Translations under genes and position numbers: made by a program
Notes under the pieces: model-generated
Seen by the model: the letters and a program-made list of their open reading frames with translations, nothing else
Databases searched by the model: none
Told to the model about the DNA's origin: nothing
Assembly: GCA_028869995.1 (NCBI GenBank)
Contig: JAGWQN010000004.1
Coordinates: 1-64,000, forward strand
DNA length: 64,000 bases
From: Rhodospirillales bacterium
GTDB taxonomy: Bacteria; Pseudomonadota; Alphaproteobacteria; Acetobacterales; Acetobacteraceae
Direction: 5' to 3'
In this document: positions 36,666 through 52,480 of the stretch, one piece after another
Layout of the letters: each line of letters starts with the position of its first letter
Position numbering within the stretch: position 1 is the first letter of the stretch

Positions 36666-37435
36666 GCGGCCAGCACCGAGCTGACCAGGAGCTGGGTATA
36701 GGGATGGCGCGGGTCGTCCAGCACCTGGTCGGTGAGGCCGTCCTCCACCACCTGCCCACGCTGCATGACCATGATCCGCGCCGCGAGCAGCCGCGCCACC
36801 GCCAGATCGTGCGTGACTAGCACCACGGCGATGCCGAGCCGGCGCACCAGCGTGCGGATCAGGTCGAGCAGGCGTGCCTGGACGGAGACGTCGAGGCCGC
36901 CGGTGGGCTCGTCCATGAAGACCAGCCGCGGCTGCGTCACCAGCGTCCGCGCGATCTGCAGCCGCTGCAACATGCCGCCCGAGAACGTGGCAGGCTTGTC
37001 GTCGATGCGTGCGACGTCGATCTCGACCTCGGCGAGCCAGCGCGCCGCCTCGTCGCGGATGTGTCCGTAGTGGCGCGCGCCCGCCGCCATCAGGCGCTCG
37101 CCAACATTGCCGCCGGCCGAGACATCCATGCGCAGCGCCTGGCGCGGATCCTGCTCGACGAACCCCCAGTCGGAGCGATGCAGGCGGCGCAACATCGGCA
37201 GCGGCATCGCATGCACATCCGTCCGCTCGCCGTCCGGCGCGCGATACCAGACATGCCCCGCCTCGGGCCGCACCCGGCCGGAGAGCACTTTCAGCAGCGT
37301 GGTCTTGCCCGACCCCGATTCGCCGACGACCGCCAGCACCTCGCCGGGCCAGAGAGCGGCACCGACGCTATCGAGGGCCGTGATCGAACCGAAACGAACC
37401 GCCAGCCCGCATGCCGACAGAAGCGGCTCGCTCAT
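36662..37435 (-). CDS. phnK: C-P lyase ABC-type subunit PhnK
   Basis: 257 residues, ABC ATPase of the oligopeptide-transporter type: GESGSGKTT Walker A, SDWGFVEQDPRQALRM Q-loop region characteristic of PhnK, FSGGMLQRLQIAR signature, LVFMDEPTGGLDVSVQ Walker B. In E. coli PhnK docks on PhnJ in the core complex. ATGA overlaps on both sides. Confidence 0.94.
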   Translation of the reverse strand: MSEPLLSACGLAVRFGSITALDSVGAALWPGEVLAVVGESGSGKTTLLKVLSGRVRPEAGHVWYRAPDGERTDVHAMPLPMLRRLHRSDWGFVEQDPRQALRMDVSAGGNVGERLMAAGARHYGHIRDEAARWLAEVEIDVARIDDKPATFSGGMLQRLQIARTLVTQPRLVFMDEPTGGLDVSVQARLLDLIRTLVRRLGIAVVLVTHDLAVARLLAARIMVMQRGQVVEDGLTDQVLDDPRHPYTQLLVSSVLAA

Positions 37436-38265
37436 GGCGCCTGCTCCCGCCGCGAGGCGCAATAATCGGTGTCCGAGCACACGAACATGCGTCCGCCGCG
37501 GTCGTCCGTCACCACCTCGTCGAGATAGCTCGCCTGTGCGCCGCACAGCGCGCACGCGTGCGGTGCACGTCCGGCGCGGAACGGATAATCCTCGAAGTCG
37601 AGGCTCGCCACGTCCGTATAAGGCGGAACTGCATAGATCCGCTTCTCCCGCCCGGCGCCGAAGAGCTGCAGGGCCGGCATGCGGTGCATCTTCGGGTTGT
37701 CGAAGGCGGGGATCGGCGAGGGGGCCATCAGGTGGCGGCCGTTCACCATCACCGGATAGTCGTAGCTGATGGCGATCTGGCCGTAGCGCGCCACCTGTTC
37801 GTACAGGCGCACATGCATGGCCCCGTATTCCGAGAGCGCGTGCATGCGGCGCGTCTCGGTTCGTGACGGCTCGAGCCGGTAGAGCGGCTCGGGCTGCGGC
37901 ACCTGGTAGACGATGATCTGCGCTTCGGTCAGGGCTGTCTCGGGGATGCGATGGCGCGTCTGGATGATGGTCGCGTGCGCGGTGCGCGTCGTCGTCGCGA
38001 CCCCGGCGGTGCGGGCGAAGAAGCGGCGGATGGAGACCGCGTTGGTCGTATCGTCCGCCCCCTGGTCGATCACCTTGAGGGTGTCGCAGCGCCCGAGCAC
38101 GGCGGCCGTCACCTGGATGCCGCCCGTGCCCCATCCATAGGGCAGCGGCATCTCGCGCGCGGCGAAGGGTATCTGGTGGCCCGGGATCGCCACGGCCTTG
38201 AGCAGGGCCCGGCGCAGCATGCGCTTGGTCTGCTCGTCGAGGTAGGCGAAATTGTAGCCCTTCAT
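37432..38265 (-). CDS. phnJ: Alpha-D-ribose 1-methylphosphonate 5-phosphate C-P lyase PhnJ
   Basis: 277 residues. Radical-SAM enzyme that cleaves the carbon-phosphorus bond. Cys238, Cys241, Cys263 and Cys269 keep the C-x2-C-x21-C-x5-C spacing of E. coli PhnJ (first three for the 4Fe-4S cluster, the last as the thiyl residue). The N-terminus MKGYNFAYLDEQTKRM is diagnostic. Overlaps phnI and phnK by 4 nt. All catalytic residues are present, so the pathway is probably active. Confidence 0.96.
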   Translation of the reverse strand: MKGYNFAYLDEQTKRMLRRALLKAVAIPGHQIPFAAREMPLPYGWGTGGIQVTAAVLGRCDTLKVIDQGADDTTNAVSIRRFFARTAGVATTTRTAHATIIQTRHRIPETALTEAQIIVYQVPQPEPLYRLEPSRTETRRMHALSEYGAMHVRLYEQVARYGQIAISYDYPVMVNGRHLMAPSPIPAFDNPKMHRMPALQLFGAGREKRIYAVPPYTDVASLDFEDYPFRAGRAPHACALCGAQASYLDEVVTDDRGGRMFVCSDTDYCASRREQAP

Positions 38266-39377
38266 GGCGGCTCGTCCGGCGGAACGGCTCCGGGTGGCGG
38301 GCCGGCTCCGGGCGCGGACCCTGCCGTCGCGCGCAGCCGCCGAACTGTTTCGAGCTCGGACTGAAAATCGACGTAATGGGGCAGCTTCAGATGCTCGACG
38401 AAGCCGGTGGCCTCGATGTTGTCGCAGGTGGCAAGCACGAATTGCGGGTCCTGGGCCGGCGCGGTGAGCGCCTCGCCAAGCTCCTCCGCCCGCAGCGCCC
38501 GATCGACCAGCGCCATCGCCATCGCCCGCCGCTCCGCGTGGCCGAAGGCGAGGCCATAGCCGCGGGTGAACTGCGCCGGCTCCGTCTTCGAGCCGGCGAA
38601 CTGGTTGACCATCTGGCATTCGGTCAGGGTCACGGTGCCGATGCAGACGGCAAAGCCCAGTTCGGCGGGCACGATCTCGACGTCGACCTCGCCCACGCGC
38701 AGCTCGCCGACGAACGGGTGGTTGTTGCCGTAGCCGCGCTGCGTGGAATAGCCGAGGCCGAGCAGGAACCCCTCGTCGCCGCGCGCCAGTCCCTGCAGGC
38801 GCGCATCGCGACCGGCGGGAAAGGCGAGGGGCGCGCGGGTGATGTCGAAGGGCTCGGCGTCGCTGCGGATGTCGGCTTCCAGCAGCCCTTCCTGGCCGAG
38901 GATGTCGGGGATCCGCGGCGCCGGACCGGGGTGCGCCCCGGCCTCGGGCGCGTCCGCGGCGGGACGGTCCTCGAGCAGCGAGAAATCCAGCAGCCGGTGC
39001 GTGTAGTCATAGGTGGGGCCCAGGACCTGACCCCCCGGAAGATCCTTGAAGATGGCGGAGATCCGGCGCGCCAGGCGCATCGCCGCGGTGTCGACGGGCA
39101 GCGCCGCGGCGAAACGCGGCAGCGTGGTGCGGAAGGCGCGCAGCAGAAATCCGGCTTCGATCAGGTCACCCTGCGCCTGCTTGATGGCCAGGGCCGCCAG
39201 GTCAGGATCGTAGAGCGAGCCCTCGGCCATCACCCGGTCGACCGCGCGGCCGAGCTGCTCGCGGATCTGCGCTGTCTGCATCGACGGGACCGTGCCATCG
39301 CCGCGGCGGGCGGCGGCCAGCCACGCATGCGCGGCATCGATCGCGCGCTCGCCGCCCTTGACGGCGACATAGGCCAT
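38262..39377 (-). CDS. phnI: C-P lyase core subunit PhnI
   Basis: 371 residues, starting MAYVAVKGGERAIDAAH as PhnI does. Conserved LPHYVDFQSEL near the C-terminus and ELGFAVCIGTVTLTECQMV. Forms the core complex with PhnG, PhnH and PhnJ and acts in ribosylation of the phosphonate. Pro-rich C-terminal tail. Start overlaps the phnH stop by one base (TAATG). Confidence 0.95.
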   Translation of the reverse strand: MAYVAVKGGERAIDAAHAWLAAARRGDGTVPSMQTAQIREQLGRAVDRVMAEGSLYDPDLAALAIKQAQGDLIEAGFLLRAFRTTLPRFAAALPVDTAAMRLARRISAIFKDLPGGQVLGPTYDYTHRLLDFSLLEDRPAADAPEAGAHPGPAPRIPDILGQEGLLEADIRSDAEPFDITRAPLAFPAGRDARLQGLARGDEGFLLGLGYSTQRGYGNNHPFVGELRVGEVDVEIVPAELGFAVCIGTVTLTECQMVNQFAGSKTEPAQFTRGYGLAFGHAERRAMAMALVDRALRAEELGEALTAPAQDPQFVLATCDNIEATGFVEHLKLPHYVDFQSELETVRRLRATAGSAPGAGPPPGAVPPDEPP

Positions 39378-39967
39378 TATGCCGCCTCCAAAACGGTGAC
39401 CGAGCGCGGCAGGCCGGCGACGGCGCTGCCCGCACACAGCAGGACGTCGATGCCACGCGGATAAAGACGCCGGTTGGCGGCCCAGCGTGCCGCGAAATCG
39501 GCAGGCAACCCGAGCGGTGCGAATGTCTGCGTGGCCTCGATCCCGGGGCCGCGCAGGATGAGCCGTGGACCGCCCTCGAGGGCCGGCACCTGCAGGATCA
39601 GCGTCGTCGATGCCTCGGGAACCTCGTCGGTGCCGGCGGCCAGGAGGGCCAGATCCGGCCATTCGTCGGCGAGCACGAAGGCAGCGTCGCCGATGTCGGC
39701 ACCGGTGCTGCCGGTGTGGAAGGCGACCCACGGTCCCAAGCCCGCGAAGGGGGGCGGAAGATGGACCGGCGCGTCGGCGTCAACGAGCGTCAGCAACACC
39801 GCGGCGGACGCGGGGGCGAGAGGCGGCGGCGGCGCCGGTGGCGTCGCCACCGTGCAGAGCGCGCCCGGCCTGGCCAGCGCGCGCAGCACGGCCCGGAAGC
39901 TCGCCTGCGCATCGTGCACCGGGTCGGCGAAGCCGGGATAGGCCAGCCCATCGTCCGGCACCGTCAT
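39377..39967 (-). CDS. phnH: C-P lyase core subunit PhnH
   Basis: 196 residues. Starts with GFADPVHDAQASFRAVLRAL and contains GPGIEATQTFAPLGLP and YPRGIDVLLCAGSAVAGLPR, both typical of PhnH, a PLP-transferase-like fold without catalytic residues. Core complex subunit. It overlaps phnG and phnI by one base each. Confidence 0.93.
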   Translation of the reverse strand: MTVPDDGLAYPGFADPVHDAQASFRAVLRALARPGALCTVATPPAPPPPLAPASAAVLLTLVDADAPVHLPPPFAGLGPWVAFHTGSTGADIGDAAFVLADEWPDLALLAAGTDEVPEASTTLILQVPALEGGPRLILRGPGIEATQTFAPLGLPADFAARWAANRRLYPRGIDVLLCAGSAVAGLPRSVTVLEAA

Positions 39968-40440
39968 CACCGCTGCGTCGCGAGGGTGAAGAAATCGACG
40001 CGCGTGGCTGCGGCACGGCGGGCGAGGGTGCTGCGGCGCTGCGCTTCGGATGCAGCGAGCGGGTCGAGCACCGCCGTCCTGAGGGCCGCGTGCCGGCCGG
40101 GGTCCTGCAAGGCCGCGTCGAGCCGGGCGGCCGCGAGCGCGTGCGCGGCGTCGCGGCCCCTCACCGTCGCGTGGCCGATCCGCCCCGCCGCGTCGCGCAC
40201 GCTCGCCCGGGTCACCGTCATCTCGCCAAGGTTGAACGGCGCGCCGCCACCGCCGGCCCGGCCGCGCAGCATGACCAGCCCGGTCTGCGGCCCGCGCAGG
40301 AGCGCGAAGTCCGGCAGGGGCGGAGCGGTGTCGAGGCACGCCGCGAGTTCGGCCGGCGCGGCGCGGGCCAGGAGGCCGATCCATGCGGCGCGCGCGTGGT
40401 GGGCGGGATCGGCGGGCGGGGATGCGGGATCGGCGACCAT
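39967..40440 (-). CDS. phnG: C-P lyase core subunit PhnG
   Basis: 157 residues. LLRGPQTGLVMLRGRAGG, PFNLGEMTVTRASVR and the C-terminal VDFFTLATQR match PhnG. First gene of the minus-strand operon. Its 47-bp upstream gap holds a perfect palindrome and is shared with phnF. I see no strong ribosome binding site in front of the ATG. Confidence 0.93.
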   Translation of the reverse strand: MVADPASPPADPAHHARAAWIGLLARAAPAELAACLDTAPPLPDFALLRGPQTGLVMLRGRAGGGGAPFNLGEMTVTRASVRDAAGRIGHATVRGRDAAHALAAARLDAALQDPGRHAALRTAVLDPLAASEAQRRSTLARRAAATRVDFFTLATQR

Positions 40441-40445
40441 GGAGA

Positions 40446-40464
40446 TGTCTAGACAACTAGATCT
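40446..40464. promoter_or_regulatory. Palindromic operator between phnG and phnF
   Basis: Perfect 10-bp palindrome TGTCTAGACA (40446-40455), directly followed by a related ACTAGA and AGATCT. The GTCTAGAC core is like operators of GntR/HutC-family regulators such as DasR. Since the adjacent regulator is a HutC-type GntR protein and both divergent starts lie within 33 bp, PhnF probably binds here and represses both directions. Confidence 0.55.
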
Positions 40465-40487
40465 TTAAATCCTAAACCGCAAGCCGT

Positions 40488-41348
40488 ATGGCACGCCCGC
40501 AGCCCACGCAGGATGATGTCTTCGTGGCGGCGCACGCACGGCGACGATCTCGCGCGACATCGGCAGATCCGCAGCCGCTTGAGCCGGGGACGCTCGTTCC
40601 CGGCGATGCCACCCGCGCCGCGGCTCCGGTCAGGGGCAGCGGGGTGGCGCTGTGGCGGCAGATTGCCGGCGACATCGAAAGCGCGATCGCGGACGGCAGG
40701 CTCCCCCCGGGCGCGCGCCTGCCGACGGAGGGGCAGCTCGCGCAGCGCTACGCCGTCAACCGCCATACGGTCCGCCGCGCCTTGGAGGAACTGGCGCGCG
40801 GCGGCCAGGTCCGGGTCGAGCAGGGGCGCGGCAGCTTCGTGGCCGAGGACGTCCTCGACTACGCCATTTCCGCCCGCACCCGTTTCTCGGAGTGGATACG
40901 CCGCCACCACCGCGAACCCGCCGGGCGCGTGCTGTCGCTCGTCACCATGCCGGCTCCGCGCGCCATCGCCGAGGCGCTGGGCATTCCACCGGGCGAGGCG
41001 ATCGCGCGGCTGGAGCGGCTTGGCCTCGCGGATGGACGCCCGGTGTGCCTCGCCTGGCATCATTTCGCGCTGGCCCGGCTTCCGGACATCGCCGCGGCCC
41101 TTGCGGCGCACGCCACGATCAGCGCCGCGCTCGCCGCGGTCGGCGTCGCCGACTATGTCCGGCGCGTCACCCGGGTCACGGCGCGCCTGCCGCGACCGGA
41201 GGAGGCGGCGCTGCTCGCAACGCCACGCAGCCGCCCGCTGCTGGTCACCGAGAGCATCAATGTCGATCGGCGCGGCCAGGTCGTCGAGTTCGGCCTGGCA
41301 TGCTATCCCACGCCACGGGTGCAGATCGTCTTCGAGCCGGGAAGCTGA
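40488..41348 (+). CDS. phnF: GntR/HutC-family transcriptional regulator PhnF
   Basis: 286 residues. Winged helix-turn-helix at about 55-120 (LWRQIAGDIESAIADG, LPTEGQLAQRYAVNRHTVRR, GRGSFVAED), then a UTRA effector domain (SARTRFSEWI to VVEFGLACYPTPRVQIVFEPG). About 45 residues longer at the N-terminus than E. coli PhnF; a GTG at 40642 preceded by AGGGG would give the usual length and remains an alternative. Represses the C-P lyase operon in known systems. Confidence 0.87.
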   Translation: MARPQPTQDDVFVAAHARRRSRATSADPQPLEPGTLVPGDATRAAAPVRGSGVALWRQIAGDIESAIADGRLPPGARLPTEGQLAQRYAVNRHTVRRALEELARGGQVRVEQGRGSFVAEDVLDYAISARTRFSEWIRRHHREPAGRVLSLVTMPAPRAIAEALGIPPGEAIARLERLGLADGRPVCLAWHHFALARLPDIAAALAAHATISAALAAVGVADYVRRVTRVTARLPRPEEAALLATPRSRPLLVTESINVDRRGQVVEFGLACYPTPRVQIVFEPGS

Positions 41349-41353
41349 GCCGC

Positions 41354-42487
41354 ATGATCCTCGCCAACGCGCGTGTGCTGACGCCCTCGGGCCTCGTCGA
41401 GCGCAACCTCGTGGTGGAGCAGGGCCGCATCGCCGGATTCACCGATGCGCCTGGGTGGGACCTGCGTGGCGCGCTGGTGCTGCCGGCGATCGTGGACATT
41501 CATGGCGATGCGTTCGAGCGTCAGTTGCAGCCGCGGCCCGGGGTCGAATTTCCCGTCGGTCTGGCTCTCGCCGAGACCGAACGGCAATTGCTGGCCAACG
41601 GCATCGCGACCGCTTTCCATGGCGTCACGCTGTCCTGGGAGCCGGGGCTGCGCGGGCTCGAGATGTGGCGCACGCTGCTGGCCGCGCTGGCCGGGAATCG
41701 TTTCACCTGCGACATGCGCGTGCATCTGCGCTGGGAAGCCCACAACGTCGCGGCCCTCGCCGATGCGCTGGACGCGATCCGTGCCGGGCAGGTGCACCTG
41801 CTGGCCTACAACGACCACACGCCGTCGATCGTGCGCAAGCTCGACAACCCGGCCGTCAGTGCCAAATACGCCGAGCGCGCCGGGATCGATGCCGATGCCT
41901 TCCGCGCGATCGCGCTGGCCGCCGCGGCGCGCGGCCCGGAGGTCGTCGGGGCCTGGCAGGCGCTGGCCGCCGCCGCGCGGGAGGCGGGCCTGCCGATCGC
42001 CAGCCACGACGATGCAACCGTCGAGGAACGCGCCCGCTTCCGTGCGGCCGGCGCTGCCATCTGCGAGTTCCCGATGGCGGAGGCGGTGGCCGTCGATGCG
42101 CGCGCGGCGGACGAGGCCGTGGTGATGGGCGCCCCCAACGTGGTCCGCGGGCGTTCGCATCTCGGCTGGGCCTCCGCCGCGGCGATGGCGCAGCGCGGTC
42201 TCTGCACCGTGCTGGCCAGCGACTACTACTATCCGTGCCTGCTCGAAGCGCCGTTCCGGCTTGCCGCTCGCGGCATGCCGCTCGCCGAGGCCTGGGCGCT
42301 GGTGGCCGCCAACCCGGCGCGGGCCTCTCGGCTCGAGGACCGCGGCCGTCTTGTGCCTGGTCTGCGTGCGGATCTTGCCGTCGTAGCGCTCGAGCAGGGC
42401 GAGCCGCATCTGCTGGCGACCTTTGTGGGCGGCGTGCTCGGCTGGGCTGCGCCCGAGTTGGGGGCCGAGCTGAAGCCCGGGGCGTGA
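41354..42487 (+). CDS. phnM: Second PhnM-like amidohydrolase
   Basis: 377 residues, PhnM family but clearly diverged from copy 1: metal motif VDIHGDAFERQ (His50, Asp52) instead of HTDNLE, a segment FHGVTLSWEPGLRGLEMWR not found in copy 1, and shared LAYNDHTPS, ASHDDATVEE and GAPNVVRGRSHLG. It starts 5 bp after phnF, so the pair is one transcript. It could be an isoenzyme for a different phosphonate or nucleotide-type substrate. Function beyond the family is inference. Confidence 0.86.
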   Translation: MILANARVLTPSGLVERNLVVEQGRIAGFTDAPGWDLRGALVLPAIVDIHGDAFERQLQPRPGVEFPVGLALAETERQLLANGIATAFHGVTLSWEPGLRGLEMWRTLLAALAGNRFTCDMRVHLRWEAHNVAALADALDAIRAGQVHLLAYNDHTPSIVRKLDNPAVSAKYAERAGIDADAFRAIALAAAARGPEVVGAWQALAAAAREAGLPIASHDDATVEERARFRAAGAAICEFPMAEAVAVDARAADEAVVMGAPNVVRGRSHLGWASAAAMAQRGLCTVLASDYYYPCLLEAPFRLAARGMPLAEAWALVAANPARASRLEDRGRLVPGLRADLAVVALEQGEPHLLATFVGGVLGWAAPELGAELKPGA

Positions 42488-42945: not shown

Positions 42946-44643
42946 TTACGGCGTCGGCGTGACCGAGGCCGTCGCGTTGCTCGAGCCCATCGACGTCGCG
43001 GCCAGGCCGGCGGGTTGTGTCGTTGGCGTGGCTTGTGCGCTCTGCTGGACGTTGTCGCTCGCCAGCGCGGTGCCGCTGGCGATGTTGGCCGTCGCGCCAG
43101 CGGTCCCGGATCCGGCGGCATCGACAGGATCCTGGCCCGTGCCCGGCAGCTTTCCGGTCGCGGTGCTGGTCACGTGGGCTTCGGCAACAGGGTTGCCTAG
43201 GCTGGAGAGCACGCCGGAAGCGGTCCCGGTGCCGTTATACGCGGCCTGGCCGCTGCCCGTCGCCGCGAGCTTGCCCGTCGATGTCGAGGCGGTGTTGACG
43301 CTGGTGGTGCCCGACGCCGTGGCCACGCCCGCCGTCGAATGGTCCGATGCCTGCGAGGAGGCCGTGCCGGTGCCATTCACGCTGCCCAGGACGCTCGCTC
43401 CCGCCCCGGTGGCCAAGGGGCCGGACCCGACCGCGGTGCTGGCCGGGCCACTCGCCGCCGCCTGAGCCTGGCCGCTGTAGTCACCCGCAGCATTGCCGCT
43501 GGCGCTGATGCCGCCGCTGGCCTTGGCCATGCTGTCAGGTGCGGCGCCGCCCGCCGCCGTCGATGCCGCGTCGGCGTTGGCGTTCACCGAGCCGTTGCCA
43601 TCGCCGGTGAGAGCCCCGTTCGTCGCGGAACTGGCGCTCGATGTCGGCGAAGCGCCGATCGCCGCGCTCGCGCTCCCGGACGAGCCGAAGGAACCCGCCG
43701 CGACGCTCCCGCCCGTCGCGGACCCGGTGATGCCGCCGGTGCTTTGCGAGTTGCTGCCGACGCTCCCCGCGGGGTTGCCGGCCGTGGCACTCGAGACGTC
43801 ACTGGCGTGACCCGAGACGCTGCCGCCGCCGGGGCCCGAAATCGAGCCATTTACGCCGGCTGAGGCGTTGGCGGACAACCCGGACGAGCCTGACACGGCT
43901 GCGTTGCCAGAGCCGCCGAAGGAAGCGGTGCCGCCGCCGGTGGTCTGGCCCGAGCCGCTGGCCGCCGTCTGCGCCGACGGGCCGGAGGCGCCGTTGGCGG
44001 TGTTGGACGTATCGCTGGCCTGGGCCTGCGCCGTGCCTGGCCCGGAGGCCGAGACATTGCTGCCGGCATTGGCCGAGCTGACGCCGCCACCGGATGGCGC
44101 GCTGGAAGCGGAGCCGCTGCCGGCGCCGGAGGCGGAGGCGTTGCCACTGGCCTGCGCGTCCGATGCCGACTGCGCCGAGGCGGTGCCGGATTGCGCCGCT
44201 CCGGCCTGGGAACCGGCATTGGCGGAGGTGCTGGCCTTCCCGCCACCGACGCTGGCCGCGGCCGCGCCACTGCCCGCCGCCGCCGCGGCGGCATTGTTAT
44301 CCGCCGCCGACACGCCTCCCGCCGTGCCGGTGGCGTCGCCCATGCTGGCGCCACCGCCGGTGGAGGACGCATTGGCCGCCGACTTCGATCCGGCCTGGGC
44401 GCTGCCGCTGCCGGCGGAGGCCGTGTCGGATGCGGACGCGCCACTGCTGGCAGTGCCGGCGCCATTCACGTCTGCGCTGCCGCTCGTGTTCGCGCCGGCG
44501 GAGGCATTGTTGCTCTCAGCCCTGGCCGTGGCGACCGTGAACGACAGCGGCTCGAGCCGGATTGAGACCGGCAACGATGCCGCCAGCAACGACAGGCTGC
44601 TGATGCTCGCAAGTAGAACGAGGCGTGATCGTGTGTTCGTCAT
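42946..44643 (-). CDS. Exported Ser/Ala/Gly/Thr-rich repetitive protein of unknown function
   Basis: 565 residues. A long signal peptide (about 1-42, ending ATARA) is followed by an almost pure Ser/Ala/Gly/Thr/Asn chain with no Cys or Trp, scarcely any Lys or Arg and few aromatics. Degenerate motifs of the type G-x-G-T-A-S...A-S-D recur (ASD at residues 71, 160, 209, 280, 432, 528), and near the C-terminus a segment at about 423-469 is repeated from 470 (NGTGTAS twice, T-x-T-GKL twice, 40-47 residues apart). AGGAAAGGG lies about 8 bp upstream of the ATG. Its own intrinsic terminator follows. Not recognised; a surface, matrix or fibre-forming protein would fit the composition, by inference. 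Confidence 0.75.
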   Translation of the reverse strand: MTNTRSRLVLLASISSLSLLAASLPVSIRLEPLSFTVATARAESNNASAGANTSGSADVNGAGTASSGASASDTASAGSGSAQAGSKSAANASSTGGGASMGDATGTAGGVSAADNNAAAAAAGSGAAAASVGGGKASTSANAGSQAGAAQSGTASAQSASDAQASGNASASGAGSGSASSAPSGGGVSSANAGSNVSASGPGTAQAQASDTSNTANGASGPSAQTAASGSGQTTGGGTASFGGSGNAAVSGSSGLSANASAGVNGSISGPGGGSVSGHASDVSSATAGNPAGSVGSNSQSTGGITGSATGGSVAAGSFGSSGSASAAIGASPTSSASSATNGALTGDGNGSVNANADAASTAAGGAAPDSMAKASGGISASGNAAGDYSGQAQAAASGPASTAVGSGPLATGAGASVLGSVNGTGTASSQASDHSTAGVATASGTTSVNTASTSTGKLAATGSGQAAYNGTGTASGVLSSLGNPVAEAHVTSTATGKLPGTGQDPVDAAGSGTAGATANIASGTALASDNVQQSAQATPTTQPAGLAATSMGSSNATASVTPTP

Positions 44644-45213
44644 GGGATGAACCCTTTCCTCTTGACAGGATGGTCAGGTCGTCCGCGCGGACGTGCTGCA
44701 CGAGACGTCGGCGGCGCTGGGTGCTCGCCAGCGCGCCGATATGGATCACCCCATCCGGCAGGAAATCCAAGAACAAAAGACATCGTTACAATATTCTGCC
44801 ACAATATATTCTAAACAGATTCGGATCTTCTTGCCTCGGGAACGCCCTTGCGGACCACCGTGCGGCGGATCCGCCTCGCCTTGTGGCGCGGCGTTCGCCA
44901 CAACGCCCGGTCTTCCGCGCCCCGGCGCCGACATGCGGTGTGACGTGGCCGGCCCAAGCGCGACGTTTCGGTCACTTTTTTGTCCCGCCGTGACAAAGCG
45001 GACCGTCCACGACAACGCCGTGCCATCACCACATTGGTGTCACGATTGGCCCCAACGTTCCGGTGCCGCGGCGGTACGCCCAAGGCCGGGAGGCAGTGTC
45101 GCCGGCAGGAATCGAAACCAAAGCGCTGCTCCCCGGTGATGTCTGCCAGCGCATCTTCGTAACTCGGAACGATCTGGTATCGATATGTTATAGTCATTGG
45201 TAACGAGGTGGTC
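44644..45213. other. Divergent intergenic region between two exported low-complexity genes
   Basis: 570 bp. Contains a 12-bp perfect palindrome GTCCGCGCGGAC (44681-44692), 38 bp upstream of the minus-strand start, and an unusually AT-rich island at about 44770-44830. The island includes ACAATAT twice (44788-44794 and 44801-44807), a likely site of the minus-strand promoter. Near the plus-strand gene, TATAGT (45189-45194) could be a -10 element, but no -35 is evident. No convincing gene is present. Confidence 0.55.
44681..44692. promoter_or_regulatory. 12-bp palindrome in leader of the Ser/Ala-rich gene
   Basis: GTCCGCGCGGAC is self-complementary and lies 38-49 bp upstream of the minus-strand ATG. 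Candidate operator or leader hairpin; no regulator assigned. Confidence 0.35.
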
Positions 45214-45819
45214 ATGAGAACGGCAATCGGCGTTTCTTCGTTCGCTTTCAAAGGCTGGCGCGGACTCTGTGCCGCGCTGCTGCTGAGCTCGACCTCCATT
45301 CCTTCCGCGCGAGCGGCGAGCGCGACCATCACCGCGGCAGCGACGTCGGCCTCGGTCAGCGGAAGCGCGACCTCGCCGATCGGCGCGACGACCAGGACGC
45401 GCTCGATGACGCGCTCGATCTCGACCCCGCACATGGCGCTCTCGATCAGCCACGCGCAGGTCATGTCGAAGACCGCAGGCGCGCCGGGCGGTGTTCTCGT
45501 CGGCCATGCCATCACACGCGCGCGCTCGATGGCCCTCGACACGCCGGGCAGGACTGCGACAACGGCCACCTCCGCCTCGTCGGCGCGCACCCACGGCACT
45601 CCCGGGGCTGTGGGCAGCGTCTCCGTCGCAGCCGGCTCGACCGCGCAGGCGTCGGCGCCAGGCAACACCGCGACCGCGCAAACAGCCGTCGCGGCGGGCA
45701 CCTCGGGCGTTTCCCCAGGGGCAGCGGCTCCCGGCCGGGGGCATGCGGCTGCGCCGTCGGGCGGGCGCGCGGGCGTGGATGGTGGTGCGGCGGGTCATGC
45801 CGCGGGCGGACGGCGATGA
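45214..45819 (+). CDS. Exported Ala/Ser/Thr-rich protein of unknown function
   Basis: 201 residues from ATG 45214, with GAGG 5 bp upstream. Signal peptide of about 36 residues (ending SARA). The mature part is Ala/Ser/Thr/Gly-rich but more basic than the large neighbour, with TRTRSMTRSIS and ITRARSMALDTPG as the least repetitive segments and a Gly/Ala/His/Arg tail. Third codon positions are strongly GC as in neighbours, supporting real coding on this strand over the long antisense frame. Not recognised. Confidence 0.6.
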   Translation: MRTAIGVSSFAFKGWRGLCAALLLSSTSIPSARAASATITAAATSASVSGSATSPIGATTRTRSMTRSISTPHMALSISHAQVMSKTAGAPGGVLVGHAITRARSMALDTPGRTATTATSASSARTHGTPGAVGSVSVAAGSTAQASAPGNTATAQTAVAAGTSGVSPGAAAPGRGHAAAPSGGRAGVDGGAAGHAAGGRR

Positions 45820-45891
45820 GCGGGCGACGTGTGCGCGCTGACCGCGCAGCTGGGCAAGGAGCGTGAAGCCGTGCCGGTGGGAGCGACAGCC

Positions 45892-46212
45892 ATGAGGATC
45901 GCCGCCCTGTTGGCACTGCTGAGCGCCGGCACGACCGCAGCCGACAGGCTGCCCGCGAGGCAACGCGTCGCCGCCGCCGGCCAGGCGGGCGCCTCGGCCG
46001 CGGCAACGGCGACGGCGAGCATGACGGCGGGCGGCGCCGGCGTTTGCGTGGCGCATGCGACGTCGCAGGTGGTGCGTCGTGTGGGCGGGCGGACGATCGT
46101 ACGCCGGGCTACGAAGACGGTCCGTGGCGAAGCCGGCTCCTGCCGCGCCGATGCCTCTGCGAGCGCGAGCCAGCCCGCATCGTCCAAGGTCCTTCCCGCG
46201 AAGCCCCGCTGA
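45892..46212 (+). CDS. Small exported protein of unknown function
   Basis: 106 residues from ATG 45892 with GGGAG about 8 bp upstream. Signal peptide of about 17-20 residues (MRIAALLALLSAGTTAA). The mature chain is Ala-rich with two Cys (GVCVAHATSQ and GSCRADAS) flanking a basic core VVRRVGGRTIVRRATKTVRG, so one disulfide is possible. It lies 72 bp after the previous exported gene, likely in the same transcript. Not recognised. Confidence 0.5.
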   Translation: MRIAALLALLSAGTTAADRLPARQRVAAAGQAGASAAATATASMTAGGAGVCVAHATSQVVRRVGGRTIVRRATKTVRGEAGSCRADASASASQPASSKVLPAKPR

Positions 46213-46230
46213 GCGGCTCCTCGCGCCGAC

Positions 46231-46260
46231 CCCCGTCATCACGATGCTGTGATGACGGGG
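46231..46260. terminator. Hairpin between convergent genes
   Basis: Perfect 12-bp stem CCCCGTCATCAC / GTGATGACGGGG with a 6-nt loop, midway between the plus-strand stop at 46212 and the minus-strand stop at 46278. No T-tract; probable bidirectional transcript end. Confidence 0.6.
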
Positions 46261-46277
46261 AAGAGGCGGAGGGATGT

Positions 46278-47204
46278 CTATGCGGCCGGCGTGACGCGAA
46301 CCTGAGTCGCACCCGTCGCCGCGTTGGTCACGACGATGCGGAAGCGATAGCTCCGGCCGGGCATCATTGCGGGCATGTTGACATTGACATCGTGCAACGA
46401 CTGCAAGACCTGATGACGCGCGCCCAGCAGCGAGACGTTGAAGGGTGGCACGCTCACCTCGGATGTCGACGTGTTGACGATGTCGCCGACGATCACGACC
46501 CGAGGCGGTCCGTTTCCGTCCATCCGCGACGAGGTCAGGTGACGGATGGACAGGTTCCCTGTGTTGGCGGCGATCGTCACGGGACCCTGGCAGGGAACGA
46601 ACCCCTGCGGCAGTTTGTCCACGCAATATCGTGACTTATATTGCGAGATGGCAACGTGTGTCCAACCGACGCCAAAGCGCGACGACCAGCTCTCCGGGGC
46701 GCGGAAGCTGAGCGAATAGAGGCCTGGCTGCAGTCTCGCGGTGGGGGCTGCGATCAACATATCCGTATGACCCGGGACCGGTGCGAAGCGGAGGGGAATG
46801 CGATACTGAGCCAGATTGGGGGCTGCCCATTGTTGCGGACGGACGACGACCCTCCCATCGTTCATTCTGCTCGAGCGTACATGGGCGACGCGTTGCAGGA
46901 CGATGGCCTTGTCCTCGGCGGTCGCGTCCATGCTGAGCCACCGGCTGTAGACGAGAAAGCGCGTGTTGCCGGCGAGATCGTTGCGATCGGACCAGGTTTT
47001 CCGCTCCCATGAGCTGTCGCCATTCAGGCGGACCAGTCCATCGCCGGTCATGGCGTAGAGACCGTAATAGGTGGGTGCTGCGACGGAACCTCCGTCTGGG
47101 AGCGTCGAGAGCTGCCGGTGCGTCGGTCCGGGTCCGCCACAGGATGCCACCAGAAGAGCCGCAGGCAGCACGACGAGCCTGCCGATTGAATTCCACATTG
47201 CCAT
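46278..47204 (-). CDS. Lipoprotein of unknown function
   Basis: 308 residues. Lipobox LLVASC with Cys at about residue 23, so membrane anchored. The middle region has TYYGLYAMTGDGLVRLNGD and AQYRIPLRFAPVPG. The C-terminal about 75 residues (PPRVVIVGDIVNTSTSEVSV to YRFRIVVTNAATGATQVRV) look like the Ig-like fold seen in FxLYD/DUF3426-type domains. GAGG 6 bp upstream supports ATG 47204. It converges with the exported genes. Not recognised beyond this. Confidence 0.72.
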   Translation of the reverse strand: MAMWNSIGRLVVLPAALLVASCGGPGPTHRQLSTLPDGGSVAAPTYYGLYAMTGDGLVRLNGDSSWERKTWSDRNDLAGNTRFLVYSRWLSMDATAEDKAIVLQRVAHVRSSRMNDGRVVVRPQQWAAPNLAQYRIPLRFAPVPGHTDMLIAAPTARLQPGLYSLSFRAPESWSSRFGVGWTHVAISQYKSRYCVDKLPQGFVPCQGPVTIAANTGNLSIRHLTSSRMDGNGPPRVVIVGDIVNTSTSEVSVPPFNVSLLGARHQVLQSLHDVNVNMPAMMPGRSYRFRIVVTNAATGATQVRVTPAA

Positions 47205-47558
47205 TTGCGCCTCGCAAGATGTTATGGGGACGTATCGTCATGCCGTGCGCGATCTTCCACTGCGAATTATGGCGAAATGCCGCATGAGCATCACATGGTC
47301 GTGGACGCCACAAAAAAGTCACATGCGTGGTCATGGTGATCTGCGAACGAGCCAGGATGCGAACGCACCACCGGCTATTTTTTGGCGTGCGCCCGCGACG
47401 ACGCTGCGATGCCTTAGACGGCGTTTGCCGGAGTGTATCGGGAGCTTGGAAATGCTCGCCTGTCACGAACGGTACGAAAACAAAATGATATCCTCAGACT
47501 GCCGTCTGAAGCAAGATGGCTCGCGTAGCACCGGAAGAGCCGTCGTGGCGGCGGCGCC
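47205..47558. other. Divergent intergenic region, lipoprotein / regulator
   Basis: 354 bp. Contains two TCACATG copies (47291 and 47319) around an A6 run and, 50 bp before the regulator start, an inverted repeat TCAGAC-TGCC-GTCTGA (47494-47509). Base composition is lower in GC than the flanking genes, consistent with promoters for both directions. No gene is seen. Confidence 0.5.
47494..47509. promoter_or_regulatory. Inverted repeat before the orphan regulator
   Basis: TCAGAC-TGCC-GTCTGA, perfect 6-bp arms, 49 bp upstream of the ATG. A plausible autoregulatory site for the winged-helix protein; inference only. Confidence 0.35.
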
Positions 47559-48395
47559 ATGATCGAGCCGGCTGCCGACTCTCCCGCAGGCGGCGACGAT
47601 GCTGGGGCCGTGGTGGCGTCGCGCGAACGCACCTTCAGGGTGCTGACCACAGGCGAGGTCCGGGATCGTCATGCCGCACTGCTGCGTCGCCTGTCGGCGC
47701 GCGTCGCGGTCGAGGAGGTGGCGGATATCCCGGCGGTCCTGCGGCGTCTGGGTGAGGCGCCGCCGCCGCATCTCCTGGTGCTCGGCTGGAACGGTGACGC
47801 GGTTGGCGATCTTGAGACCGTGCGAAGCCTGCACGCGCATCCCAGCCGGGTGCCGCTGTTTATCGTGCAGCACCAGCCGGAAGTGCTGGCCGGGCAGGCT
47901 TGGGGCACGGCCGATGACAGCGAGGAGGTGGATGTCGTCCGCGACGCCGTGTTGCGGCTCGTGGCGTCGATCGGCAGCCTGGTGAGCGGCACGCCCGATC
48001 CGGACAGGCGGTCCGCCTCCGTCGCCGACGTGCCGTCGGAGAGCCCGCTCGAGCTACGCCGCGACGAGTGCCGCGCCCTGTGGCGCGGCCGGGTCGTCAA
48101 TCTGAGCCTCACGGAGTTCCGCATCGTCGCGCGGCTGGTTGCCGAGGCGGGCGCGGAGATCAGTCATCGCGATCTCTACGACACGATCAAAGGCGAGGGT
48201 TTTGTCGCCGGCGCCGGCGAGGCCGGCTACCGCAGCAACGTGCGTGCAACGATCAAACGAATCCGCCAGAAGTTTCGCCAGGCGGATCCCGGATTTGAGG
48301 CGATCCGCAACTATCCGGGCTTTGGCTATCGTTGGGTTGTCGACGTTGCGGCGCCGGCCGGCCCGGTGACCGGCGCCCGCAGCGCCGGCCTCTAA
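47559..48395 (+). CDS. Orphan OmpR-type winged-helix regulator with degenerate receiver-like domain
   Basis: 278 residues. The C-terminal DNA-binding domain (about 165-270) matches Trans_reg_C: LSLTEFRIVARLVAEAG, ISHRDLYDTI, NVRATIKRIRQKFRQ and the terminal NYPGFGYRW. Residues about 25-140 could be a receiver-like fold (HLLVLGWNGD, VPLFIVQHQP), but the usual phospho-acceptor Asp position is replaced and no conserved Lys is seen. No histidine kinase is nearby. The last 4 bases overlap the end of convergent tamB. A ChvI-like regulator is the nearest resemblance; target genes are unknown. Confidence 0.72.
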   Translation: MIEPAADSPAGGDDAGAVVASRERTFRVLTTGEVRDRHAALLRRLSARVAVEEVADIPAVLRRLGEAPPPHLLVLGWNGDAVGDLETVRSLHAHPSRVPLFIVQHQPEVLAGQAWGTADDSEEVDVVRDAVLRLVASIGSLVSGTPDPDRRSASVADVPSESPLELRRDECRALWRGRVVNLSLTEFRIVARLVAEAGAEISHRDLYDTIKGEGFVAGAGEAGYRSNVRATIKRIRQKFRQADPGFEAIRNYPGFGYRWVVDVAAPAGPVTGARSAGL

Positions 48396-51300
48396 TAGTC
48401 GAGCTGGTAGCTCAGGCCGATGGAACCGCCGGTGCTGTCCTGCGGTGCCGCCCCGCTCACGCTGCCGCCGGTGCTTGCCTGGGTGTTCAGCTTGAGCCGT
48501 TTCGTGAGGTTGATCTGCACCTGCGCGTGCGTTGAGCCGCTCATGCTTCGCGACGCTCCGACATAGACGCCTGGGGCCACATATTTGCCGGCCTGCAGGG
48601 TCGCGGCACCGATGTGTCCGCTGCTGCTGCCGACGGCAAGGCGGTCGAGCCCGAGCGCGCTCTGAATCCCGCTCAGCGGGCCGCCGCCGCCGCCATGCGT
48701 CAGCGAGTAGAGCGCCTGCGCGATCGCCGCGAGCTGCAGCGGGGATAGCTGGGAGAGGCTGACGCCATAGAGCAGATGCGCCAGCACTTCGTCCTGCGGC
48801 AGCGTGGGTGTGCTGGAGAGCGCGATGGTCGGGTGGGAGGCGGTGCCGGCGACGGTAAGCCGCGCGGTGATGCCGCTGGCTTGGCTCTGGGCGACGAAAT
48901 GCAGCACCGGGTTGAGCCGACCGGTGATGCTTTGTCCGGTGAACGTGACGTTGCCCTCGGTCAGGGTGAGATTGGCACCGGCGAGGGCGAAGCTGCCATT
49001 CGCGAGCTGGAACCCATCGGAAACCTGTGGCGCAGCGCTGGTGCCGCGCAACCGCAGATCGCCGCCGAGCCGCGCAAAGAGACCGCGCCCGCGCACGAAG
49101 ATCGCCGGCGGCGCATGCACGTTCAGGTCCAGGCCCAGCAGGGGAGCGGGCGAGGGAGGTGCCGGCGCTCGCTGCCCCGGGCGCACGACGTCGAGCGTCG
49201 CAACGGAAGGCGGAAAGCGGTCGGGGATGTTGATCGTCGCGTGCCGCACCGAGATCGTTCCGGAGAGGTCGAGACGACGCTGCGCCCTTCCGCGGAGGGT
49301 CAGGTTGGCGTCGAGATCGGCGGTCAGCAGGTCGGATGCGAGCGGCTGGGCGTTGTTCATGCGCAGCGCGAGATCGAGCGGAATGCCCGGTTGCAGGGCA
49401 CCGATGCTGCCGGTCAGGCCAATCGTTCCGGGGCCGGCATGGGCCAGTCCGTTCTCGATCCGCAGACTTCGCCCCTGGCCGATGATCCGCCCGCTGATGT
49501 CGGTGAGATGCACGCCCCGCGCAACGTCCTGCAGTTCGCCGCCGGAAAGATCGAGGGTGCCGGAGAGTGCGGGCTGCTGCACGCTGCCGCGCAACGCCGT
49601 GTCGATGGCCAGACGGCCGGCGACGTGCTGGCCATTCGCCTCGAGGATCGGGTTGGCAAGGGCGAGGTCGATGTCGCCGCGGGCGGCGAGCGCGAGCGGC
49701 CCGGCGGCGCCCAGCGGAGCCGTCCCGGTGAGCGTGAGGGCGAGGCCCTTGCCCGCGCGCAGACGAGCGTCGACCGTGGTGCGGCCCCGGGCGAGGCCGA
49801 GGGTCGCGGTCAATGCTGCCGGCGGCAGGGCGCGCGCGTGGCCCGCGAGCAGGCGCATGTCGCGCGCGGCGATCCGCACCGTGCCGCCTGGCGCCGCGAG
49901 GGAGCCGGTGAGGTGCGCGCCGATATCGGCCATGCCGCTGGCCTGCAGGGCCGGAAAGAACGGCCGGGCCAGTGCCGGCGTCGCATGGGCGAGAGCGGCG
50001 GTGAGGTCGAGGGTCGGCAGCACCTGCCCGGCGATCTCCAGCGTCGCGGTGCCGAGGGCGAGGCGCAGCTGGCCGATCGTAAGCCGCGGCCCATAGGCGA
50101 TGCGGGCCGGGGCGAGCAGGTGCAGATCCTCGCCCTTCCAGGCCGCGGTCAGCGTGCCCAGCACGACCTGCCGGGCGGGAAGATCGGCCTTCGCGCGCGC
50201 GGACAGCCGCAGCGGGGCGCTCTCCAGACCGGTGAGGCTGGCATCGGCGCCGATCGCGAGGTCCGACAGCGTTCCGCTCGCCGTTGCGGTCGCGTCTGCG
50301 GCAAGCTGGCCGGCCCGGATGCCGTGCGCCACGAGGCGCATCGCGATCGCGGCGCGGCCGGCGGGGTTCGTGATCGTTGCGTTCAGCGTGGCCGCGCTGA
50401 TCCTGGCAGCGGCGGTGCCGGCATCCTTCGCCTGCACGGTGAGGGTGACGCGCGGCGTGGCGCCGGCCACCGCGGTCGCGACCTGCGCGCTGGCGCTGCC
50501 GGATAGCGGCAGCCCCAGCAGCGGCGTGAGATCGGCCAGGCGTTGCATGCTGATGTCGAGCGTGCCGAGCGGGAAGGCGGCGCCTGGCGGCAGGCTGAGA
50601 TCGGCGGTCCCGTGCAGTGTCTTCCAGTCGAGCGTTCGCAGGTGGATCTGGCTCGTCTGCCGGTTGCGCCGGGCGTCCGCGGCGAGGGCGAGCGGGGCGC
50701 CGTCGAGCGTGGCGTGCAGGACGATTTCGGCGCGGGGGCGCCGCGGCAGGCCGGTGAGGTCGGCGCTGAAGGCGAGCGGGCCCGGAGGTATCTGGCGGGT
50801 CCCCAGCGAGCCCGTGGCGAGCAGATGGGCGGCCAGATTGTCCATGGTCCCGCTGGCCGTGCCGCGCAGCCTCAACTGGCCGCGCAGGGCGGGGCTCGCG
50901 GCCGCGAGGTCGGGGAGGTCGATCGTGCAGGCGGCCTCGAGCGCGCTTCCCGCAGCGCTGCCATGAGCCGCGAGCCGCAGCGCGGCGCCTGTCAGCGTGG
51001 CGGACCGCACGGCGAGATGCAGGCCGGAAGGCGCCGCGTGCAGTGCGGCGTGGAGTGCCAGATGCCCGGTGCCGCCGATGAGGGCGACCACCGGGCGCAG
51101 CCCCCCCGTGATCGCGAGCGGACCCGAGAGCGAAATGGCGGTGTTGGCACCGTGCTGCGCGAAGGTGGCCGCAAGTGTGGTGCTGCCGGTGAGGGGGACG
51201 CCGGCCATGGCGGCGAAGGGCGTGAGGTCGGGCAGCACGAGGCGCAGCGTGCCGTGCGGTGATGCGCCGAGCGCCACGGTGCCCCGGGCGGTGGCGAGCG

Positions 51301-52480
51301 GGTGGCGCAGCCGGAAGCGGACCTGCGGAGGCGCCGTGCCGAGCCGCGCGGTTGCGGTGAGTTGGAAGGGAGCGGCAGAAAACAGGGTTGGTTGCGGTCC
51401 AGGAATGAGAACGCCATCGGCCGTGGCTGCCAGCGTGACGGTTCCCTGCCGCCCCTGAAGCGTCGCATCGAGCGAACCGATGGTAGCACCTGCGGCGCTG
51501 AGGCCGGCGATGCGGATCCGGCCCGTCGCGTGAGGCCGGCTCAATGTCCCGGAGAGGTGCGTCTCGATCGCGACGGACCGCCAGGCGAGGCCGGCGGCGG
51601 GGGCCATCGCGGGGGCACTGGCCTGTACATCCAGCGTCGCGGCCCTTGCGGGCAGGTCGATCGTGCCGGCGGCGCTTGCCGTGAGAGGCCCGGCGGCCAG
51701 GGCCAGGTGCAGCGCCGCGGCATCGCGCGGCCCGGCGAGGGACAGTCGCAGATGCAGCTTGCCCCCGAGGTGCGGCAGGCGCGCGATGCCGGCGAGCAGG
51801 CCACGATCGGGTTCCTTGGCATCGATGCGCAGGGCGATCGTCTGCGCCATCAGCCGTGCCGAGGCGACATAGGAGCCGGGAGCATCGAGGCGGTGCACGA
51901 CCAGCTTCGCGGTGCCGCGGCCGGGGCTCGCGAGGTCGGCGCGCCCGCTGACCGCCAGCGTTGCCGGCGTGCCGGCGATGGGCGCCCCGAGGGTGAGCCG
52001 TCGGACCGCGAGCTGGTCGATGGCGAGGTGCGCGACCGGGAGGCCAGATGGCGCGCCCAGCGAGGCCGGCGCGGCTTTGTTTGCGCCACCTTGTGCCTGC
52101 GGCAGCCGCGTGAGCTCGATCACATTCGCTGTGAGCGAGCGGATGTGCATGCTGCTCGAGAGCAAGGCGAGCGGAGACCAGCGCAGCTCGACGCCTTCGA
52201 GGATCGCGTAGACCCCGTTGCGATCACGCACCGAGATACGTGCGATGCGCAGGTTCCAGGGTGGCGTGCCGCCGAGGCCCGCGATCTGCACCGCCCCGCC
52301 ACTGAGCGCGGTGACTTCGGCCGCGGCCAGGCGCTGGCCGAAGCCGGTTTCCAGCAGGGCGAGCACGCTCCCGGCGGCGAGCAGCGGCACGACGACGACG
52401 AGGCAGGTGAACCAGACGAAAAATCGTCCGGCGCGTCGTTTCCGGCGCGGTCCTGGTGTTGCTGTCGTGGTGTCGCCCAT
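48392..52480 (-). CDS. tamB: Translocation and assembly module protein TamB
   Basis: 1362 residues. N-terminal inner-membrane anchor (about 20-42), then a very long beta-strand-rich AsmA/TamB-like groove and the C-terminal DUF490 domain, which ends LTKRLKLNTQASTGG to LSYQLDY. It spans the periplasm and moves phospholipids or outer-membrane proteins together with TamA. It starts with a one-base overlap on the tamA stop (TGATG). The stop codon overlaps that of the convergent regulator. Confidence 0.92.
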   Translation of the reverse strand: MGDTTTATPGPRRKRRAGRFFVWFTCLVVVVPLLAAGSVLALLETGFGQRLAAAEVTALSGGAVQIAGLGGTPPWNLRIARISVRDRNGVYAILEGVELRWSPLALLSSSMHIRSLTANVIELTRLPQAQGGANKAAPASLGAPSGLPVAHLAIDQLAVRRLTLGAPIAGTPATLAVSGRADLASPGRGTAKLVVHRLDAPGSYVASARLMAQTIALRIDAKEPDRGLLAGIARLPHLGGKLHLRLSLAGPRDAAALHLALAAGPLTASAAGTIDLPARAATLDVQASAPAMAPAAGLAWRSVAIETHLSGTLSRPHATGRIRIAGLSAAGATIGSLDATLQGRQGTVTLAATADGVLIPGPQPTLFSAAPFQLTATARLGTAPPQVRFRLRHPLATARGTVALGASPHGTLRLVLPDLTPFAAMAGVPLTGSTTLAATFAQHGANTAISLSGPLAITGGLRPVVALIGGTGHLALHAALHAAPSGLHLAVRSATLTGAALRLAAHGSAAGSALEAACTIDLPDLAAASPALRGQLRLRGTASGTMDNLAAHLLATGSLGTRQIPPGPLAFSADLTGLPRRPRAEIVLHATLDGAPLALAADARRNRQTSQIHLRTLDWKTLHGTADLSLPPGAAFPLGTLDISMQRLADLTPLLGLPLSGSASAQVATAVAGATPRVTLTVQAKDAGTAAARISAATLNATITNPAGRAAIAMRLVAHGIRAGQLAADATATASGTLSDLAIGADASLTGLESAPLRLSARAKADLPARQVVLGTLTAAWKGEDLHLLAPARIAYGPRLTIGQLRLALGTATLEIAGQVLPTLDLTAALAHATPALARPFFPALQASGMADIGAHLTGSLAAPGGTVRIAARDMRLLAGHARALPPAALTATLGLARGRTTVDARLRAGKGLALTLTGTAPLGAAGPLALAARGDIDLALANPILEANGQHVAGRLAIDTALRGSVQQPALSGTLDLSGGELQDVARGVHLTDISGRIIGQGRSLRIENGLAHAGPGTIGLTGSIGALQPGIPLDLALRMNNAQPLASDLLTADLDANLTLRGRAQRRLDLSGTISVRHATINIPDRFPPSVATLDVVRPGQRAPAPPSPAPLLGLDLNVHAPPAIFVRGRGLFARLGGDLRLRGTSAAPQVSDGFQLANGSFALAGANLTLTEGNVTFTGQSITGRLNPVLHFVAQSQASGITARLTVAGTASHPTIALSSTPTLPQDEVLAHLLYGVSLSQLSPLQLAAIAQALYSLTHGGGGGPLSGIQSALGLDRLAVGSSSGHIGAATLQAGKYVAPGVYVGASRSMSGSTHAQVQINLTKRLKLNTQASTGGSVSGAAPQDSTGGSIGLSYQLDY

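What the first reader, a model, noticed from the sequence alone, without database searches (positions are those of the whole stretch)
42946..47204. Cluster of unrecognised exported low-complexity proteins
Four exported products lie together: a 565-residue Ser/Ala/Gly/Thr chain without Cys or Trp, two small Ala-rich secreted proteins, and a lipoprotein with an Ig-like end. Next to them is an orphan regulator. None matches a family I know. The composition of the large one suits a fibrous, matrix or surface-coat material. This is the best candidate for an undescribed system in the window. Exported nature is read from signal peptides; joint function is inference.
Basis: partly seen in the sequence, partly recalled or inferred. 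Interest (0 to 1): 0.72.

Follow-up and report, generated by a model that had tools for sequence, protein, structure and literature searches.

The report
Conserved exported β-alternating coat-protein gene cluster
Some acetic-acid-bacteria relatives carry a small gene set, found together in several different genomic places, that encodes a long exported Ser/Ala/Gly/Thr protein with a silk-like two-residue rhythm, a small companion, a lipoprotein anchor candidate and a regulator; it is probably an undescribed surface or envelope material, but its function has not been shown.

Summary
The 565-aa Ser/Ala/Gly/Thr protein (BIG), the small exported S2, the lipoprotein (LIPO) and the regulator (REG) form a module conserved as a unit. 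LIPO is in all five held genomes of another genus of the family (Acetobacteraceae), and the whole module, intact, in four of them (the fifth is broken by contig ends), at 30-45% protein identity to the window. Gene order and orientation are the same in every intact copy; neighbouring genes differ in four settings. LIPO and BIG searches over 397 family genomes hit the same six genomes, apart from one marginal BIG hit. The second small protein (S1) has no relative in the other copies and is doubtful.

BIG is not mere composition. It aligns 20-34 SD above composition-matched shuffles, is under purifying selection, and alternates polar and small residues; the six BIG-family proteins rank 1-6 of 146 for this trait. 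That is a β-strand signature, as in silk or amyloid fibres. LIPO ends in an Ig-like DUF3426 domain. REG has a degenerate phosphorylation site. Curli is excluded: no CsgG, no curlin repeats.

Best guess: a regulated β-sheet fibre or coat with an outer-membrane lipoprotein assistant. Module conservation is well supported; function is inference.

The parts
42946..44643 (-). BIG: 565-aa exported Ser/Ala/Gly/Thr protein (no Cys, no Trp), long-range two-residue polar/small alternation; proposed beta-sheet fibre or coat subunit
   Evidence: ORF; 42-44% identical relatives in L038, L039, L066, L067; shuffle test; dN/dS 0.36; alternation z = 15.3, first of 146; no Pfam/NCBIfam match; AlphaFold uninformative, pLDDT 30
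44644..45213 (.). Intergenic region between BIG and S1/S2 (divergent promoters); holds CACTTTTTTGT at 44973-44983
   Evidence: the word shared with 47310-47320 was noticed before it was tested and is not seen in relatives
45214..45819 (+). S1: 201-aa Ala/Ser-rich ORF with signal-peptide-like start; not part of the conserved core, gene status uncertain
   Evidence: no counterpart seen in the corresponding gap of L038, L039, L066, L067
45892..46212 (+). S2: 106-aa small exported protein with an alternating Ala/Ser stretch and two conserved Cys around a Lys/Arg-bearing segment; proposed minor subunit or companion of BIG
   Evidence: relatives in the same place and orientation in L038, L039, L066, L067; shuffle z = 7.5-9.1
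46278..47204 (-). LIPO: 308-aa lipoprotein, lipobox C22, unnamed N-terminal domain with two invariant Cys (194, 205), C-terminal Ig-like DUF3426 domain
   Evidence: DUF3426 in 6 of 7 members, best E = 3.8e-8; C-terminal domain pLDDT 74-85; weak Ig-like matches, e.g. ApaG, E about 0.06, TM-score about 0.48 of the target
47205..47558 (.). Divergent intergenic region LIPO/REG, holds GACTTTTTTGT at 47310-47320 (-)
47559..48395 (+). REG: OmpR-family DNA-binding regulator with a degenerate receiver-like part (Gly at the phosphoacceptor position; Gly, Glu or Asp in relatives), no kinase beside it
   Evidence: (Trans_reg_C E = 4.3e-8)

Best explanation
A four-gene module (REG, LIPO, S2, BIG) makes and controls an exported beta-sheet structural material of the cell envelope. 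Shown by sequence: the four genes are kept together in the same order and orientation, in different genomic settings; BIG, S2 and LIPO carry export-signal-like starts; BIG has in-phase two-residue alternation of polar and small residues and is under purifying selection. Inferred: REG turns on the two divergent promoter regions. BIG leaves the cytoplasm through Sec and packs by its small alternating side chains into flat beta-sheets (silk- or amyloid-like) to make a fibre, coat or matrix. S2, with its Cys-flanked charged segment and shorter alternating stretch, is a minor or capping subunit. LIPO sits in the outer membrane and holds or helps assemble the material through its Ig-like domain. How BIG would cross the outer membrane is not known, since no channel gene is in the module.
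For: Same core order and orientation in the window, L038, L039, L066 and L067, with different flanking genes; L068/L083 fit a contig break. Independent LIPO and BIG searches of 397 family genomes hit the same six genomes, plus one marginal BIG hit at E = 9e-4; 5 of 5 held genomes of the second genus have LIPO. The window neighbour TamB lies on another contig in two relatives. BIG homology is not a composition effect, dN/dS is 0.36, and alternation ranks 1-6 of 146 proteins (positive even lags). S2 is conserved with two Cys. The LIPO lipobox and DUF3426 domain are conserved.
Against: No experiment. AlphaFold gave no usable model of BIG (pLDDT 30). There is no exporter in the module and no CsgG in the genomes, so BIG may stay in the periplasm. 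A second BIG copy in one genome stands without LIPO. A full-length LIPO relative outside the family (L069) lies beside a low-complexity ORF that is not detectably BIG. Only two genera of the family have the module in these data. A shared regulator site is weak: a post hoc match in the window only.
Confidence: 0.42

Rival explanations
1. BIG is a disordered, soluble or O-glycosylated mucin-like exported chain (a hydrated layer or periplasmic filler). The alternation does not reflect beta structure, and LIPO is an independent envelope factor.
For: About 30% Ser+Thr, few hydrophobic residues, pLDDT near 30 over the whole length; no internal repeat.
Against: Alternation exceeds composition-preserving shuffles by up to 15 SD and is kept in every family member. 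Low pLDDT from a three-sequence alignment says little about order. Close linkage with LIPO and S2 in differing settings.
Confidence: 0.25
2. BIG is a secreted adhesin or binding surface (beta-solenoid type, including ice-binding) rather than a polymerising material; LIPO presents it on the cell surface.
For: Beta-type alternation plus Thr/Ser/Ala/Asn/Gly composition as in some solenoids; lipoprotein partner.
Against: No repeat period that a regular solenoid would give; TxT not clearly enriched (9 versus 5.5 expected in the window, 8 versus 8.5 in G085); no autotransporter or anchor domain.
Confidence: 0.15
3. A curli- or Fap-type functional amyloid system that sequence searches fail to name.
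For: Layout resembles major subunit, minor subunit, accessory lipoprotein and regulator (inference).
Against: No CsgG (PF03783) in any of six carrier genomes while the control rings in four of 14 known genomes; no Q-x-G-x-x-N curlin repeats in any BIG (motif as given in PMC3521004); no Pfam curlin match.
Confidence: 0.04
4. The genes are neighbours by chance or by inherited synteny, without a common function.
For: Few genomes (six), two genera; one solo BIG copy.
Against: Flanking genes differ in four settings while order and orientation of the core are kept; matching phyletic patterns over 397 genomes.
Confidence: 0.08

Closest known systems
Curli system (CsgA/CsgB/CsgG/CsgD)
   Same: Exported low-charge major protein, small companion, lipoprotein and a transcription regulator in a divergent gene cluster (resemblance in layout only)
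   Different: No curlin repeat, no CsgG channel, regulator is OmpR-type, LIPO matches no Csg family
Fap system of Pseudomonas (FapA-F)
   Same: Low-complexity exported fibre protein in a small gene set (own knowledge; PMC5557850 abstract, describes the dedicated channel)
   Different: No family match and no channel gene in the module; FapF was not searched genome-wide
Silk fibroin and other small-residue beta-sheet fibres
   Same: Two-residue alternation of small and polar residues, Gly/Ala/Ser/Thr dominance, almost no charge (fibroin from own knowledge)
   Different: No repeated (GA)n blocks, no homology claimed; fibre formation untested
DUF3426 (PF11906) proteins
   Same: C-terminal about 90 residues of LIPO
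   Different: LIPO adds a lipobox and an unnamed N-terminal domain of about 190 residues
OmpR/PhoB-type response regulators (TIGR03787 is the best NCBIfam hit)
   Same: C-terminal winged-helix DNA-binding domain
   Different: Phosphoacceptor Asp replaced by Gly or Glu in most members, no kinase beside it; far below the TIGR03787 cut-off

Membership tests
Curli system | CsgG outer-membrane channel | tested here: not met
   PF03783 absent from all six carrier genomes; controls positive. Three of the six are below 90% complete.
Curli system | Curlin repeats X6-Q-X-G-X2-N-X10 in the major subunit | tested here: not met
   0 matches in all five BIG proteins; motif from PMC3521004
Fap system | FapC sequence family | tested here: inconclusive
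   No Pfam or NCBIfam match for any BIG member; whether those libraries hold a FapC model was not checked
Fap system | FapF channel | not tested
   No channel gene in the module; genome-wide search not run
Type V autotransporter or trimeric adhesin | C-terminal beta-barrel or YadA anchor in the passenger protein | tested here: not met
   No such domain in BIG; C-terminus ends in Ser/Thr/Pro
DUF3426 domain proteins (LIPO) | Match to PF11906 | tested here: met
   6 of 7 family members match, best E = 3.8e-8; the window protein alone does not reach E = 1, so its membership rests on its homologues and on the profile hits
Bacterial lipoproteins (LIPO) | Signal peptide with lipobox Cys | tested here: met
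   VASC22 read by eye, Cys invariant in seven relatives; acylation itself not testable here
Phosphorylated OmpR-type response regulator (REG) | Trans_reg_C DNA-binding domain | tested here: met
   E = 4.3e-8, above cut-off
Phosphorylated OmpR-type response regulator (REG) | Receiver domain with phosphoacceptor Asp | tested here: not met
   Gly in the window, G245 and G276; Glu in G085 and G160; Asp only in G208; no Response_reg match
Beta-sheet fibre protein (functional kind) | Assembly into fibres with cross-beta or silk beta-sheet structure | not testable with these tools
   Only the alternation pattern is shown

The most novel reading that the evidence does not exclude
A previously undescribed, silk-like proteinaceous coat or matrix system of Acetobacteraceae. 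A non-repetitive small-residue beta protein of about 570 aa is built outside or at the outer membrane with a Cys-bearing companion, an Ig-like lipoprotein and a phosphorylation-independent regulator, without any known amyloid exporter.
Probability: 0.3. Interest if true: 0.75.

Novelty: new variant of a known kind. Interest (0 to 1): 0.52.

Why it matters
If true, it adds a β-fibre or coat system that sequence libraries do not recognise, with a non-repetitive small-residue subunit. That would be useful both for understanding biofilm or envelope materials in this family and as a new silk-like protein. It also shows that a low-complexity protein usually dismissed as composition noise can be a conserved, selected member of a gene module.

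Tried and rejected
Curli membership: rejected. Internal 77-residue repeat suggested by single-property autocorrelation: not confirmed by profile self-comparison. Ice-binding TxT faces: not clearly enriched. S1 as a relative of BIG or S2: not supported. BIG structure: AlphaFold at pLDDT 30, so no fold search was made. LIPO N-terminal domain: no fold found, low-confidence model. L069 low-complexity ORF as BIG: no match. Sequence search against solved structures: nothing for LIPO, only insignificant hits for BIG. Shared regulator motif between the two promoter regions: only a post hoc word in the window, none in relatives, and 14-mer sharing was no higher than shuffled controls in most genomes. 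Mis-binned contig as explanation: a gene elsewhere in the window is 78-89% identical to same-genus genomes, so this contig belongs to the genus. Absence of the cluster in the other genomes of the window's genus is weak evidence, because they are fragmented and two are 67-75% complete; a TamB search found nothing in them either, so the empty site could not be examined. Plasmid carriage: no LIPO match in PLSDB. Literature on the carrier genomes: nothing found.

Full report
Observation. BIG (42946-44643, minus strand, 565 aa) has a mature part of 74% Gly+Ala+Ser+Thr, with no Cys, Trp or Arg and little charge. LIPO (46278-47204, minus) has a lipobox with Cys22. S2 (45892-46212, plus) and S1 (45214-45819, plus) have signal-peptide-like starts (read by eye). 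REG (47559-48395, plus) has an OmpR-type DNA-binding domain. Pfam and NCBIfam name none of BIG, S1 or S2. The host genome is a 2.9-Mb draft, 77% complete. Relatives recovered by name are Acetobacteraceae metagenome-assembled genomes.

Conserved module. REG led to neighbourhoods in another genus of the same family. There the order REG, LIPO, S2, BIG is the same as in the window, with the same relative orientations: REG and LIPO diverge, S2 and BIG diverge. Two further genomes gave the same arrangement (L066, L067); a fifth is compatible with a contig break (L068, L083). Identities to the window are 37-45% over BIG, LIPO and REG and 30-37% over S2. The genes around the module differ. In the window they are phnM and tamB; in G085/G160 a hydantoinase-like gene (after a small acetyltransferase-like one) and an edd-like gene; in G208 a helicase-like and a dehydrogenase-like gene; in G245 yet others (gene names by eye from the translations except in the window). 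TamB is on another contig in G085 and G208. LIPO and BIG searched separately over 397 family genomes hit the same six genomes, apart from a marginal BIG hit at E = 9e-4. All five held genomes of the second genus have LIPO. S1 has no counterpart in the other copies, no alternation and no similarity to the rest, so it is left out of the core.

BIG is a real, selected protein with a β-type rhythm. The window BIG aligned against relatives scores 20-34 SD above composition-preserving shuffles. Between two close relatives dN/dS is 0.36, weaker constraint than a flanking enzyme (0.12) but well under 1. Polar and small residues alternate with period two: autocorrelation of the polar profile is positive at even lags up to 20 and negative at lags 1 and 3. 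Among 146 proteins of the window and relatives' loci, the six BIG-family proteins rank 1-6 for this trait (z 5.2-15.3), above TamB at 4.2. Strand-like alternation without a repeat period points to flat β-sheets of small side chains, as in silk or amyloid fibres, rather than a regular solenoid. A three-sequence AlphaFold run gave no usable model, so the fold is inferred from the pattern alone.

LIPO, S2 and REG. LIPO's last 90 residues belong to DUF3426: six of seven members match it, though the window protein alone does not. The model of this part is the only confident region; its best local matches are Ig-like sandwiches such as ApaG, none with a significant E-value. The preceding domain, with two invariant Cys, is unnamed. 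One full-length relative exists outside the family (L069), next to a low-complexity ORF cut by the contig edge that is not detectably BIG. S2 has two conserved Cys around a Lys/Arg-bearing segment and a modest alternating stretch. REG's phosphoacceptor position is Gly, Glu or Asp in different members, so phosphorylation is probably not how it is switched in most of them. In the window the word [CG]ACTTTTTTGT occurs only twice, in the two intergenic regions of the module, with 0.10 expected; this was noticed before it was tested and does not recur in relatives.

Mechanism. The proposal is that REG drives the divergent promoters, BIG is exported and assembles into a β-sheet fibre, coat or matrix, S2 is a minor or capping subunit, and LIPO anchors or assists at the outer membrane. 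Shown: linkage, export-signal-like starts, selection and alternation. Inferred: assembly, place, partner contacts and regulation. The main gap is the route across the outer membrane. No channel is in the module, curli's CsgG is absent from all carriers and BIG has no curlin repeat, so it is not curli. A soluble or mucin-like chain and a surface adhesin remain open.

Verdict. A conserved module of mostly unnamed exported proteins, restricted in these data to two genera of one family, likely making an envelope or extracellular β material. The gene-cluster claim is strong, the functional claim moderate.

Noticed in passing
window 48392-54339: TamB (48392-52480, named from its translation and position) and a TamA/Omp85 protein with POTRA domains (52480-54339) lie directly beside REG in the window; in relatives TamB is elsewhere, so it is not part of the module.
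   Followed up: partly
window 34202-42487: A phosphonate (C-P lyase type) gene set, with a PhnF regulator and PhnM identified by profiles, flanks the module on the BIG side.
   Followed up: partly
window 24048-25967: A 639-aa protein with a beta-repeat-like N-terminal part and a C-terminal Hint domain (PF13403, E = 2.7e-44); eighth of 146 for two-residue alternation.
   Followed up: no
L082 7672-9462: A second, solo BIG paralogue (596 aa, Gly/His-rich N-terminal part) in G085, without LIPO beside it, next to a TPR-repeat protein.
   Followed up: partly
L069 1-556: Beside the only full-length LIPO relative found outside the family lies a Ser/Ala/Gly-rich ORF cut by the contig edge; not detectably related to BIG.
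   Followed up: partly
window 44973-44983 and 47310-47320: The word [CG]ACTTTTTTGT occurs only at these two places in the window, both in intergenic regions of the module; possible shared regulatory site, noticed post hoc.
   Followed up: partly
L040 7255-9482, L041 7086-9306, L042 4218-6457: REG-like regulators in other genomes of the family are followed by what looks like a histidine kinase gene, unlike REG; REG may be a kinase-less descendant of such a pair.
   Followed up: no
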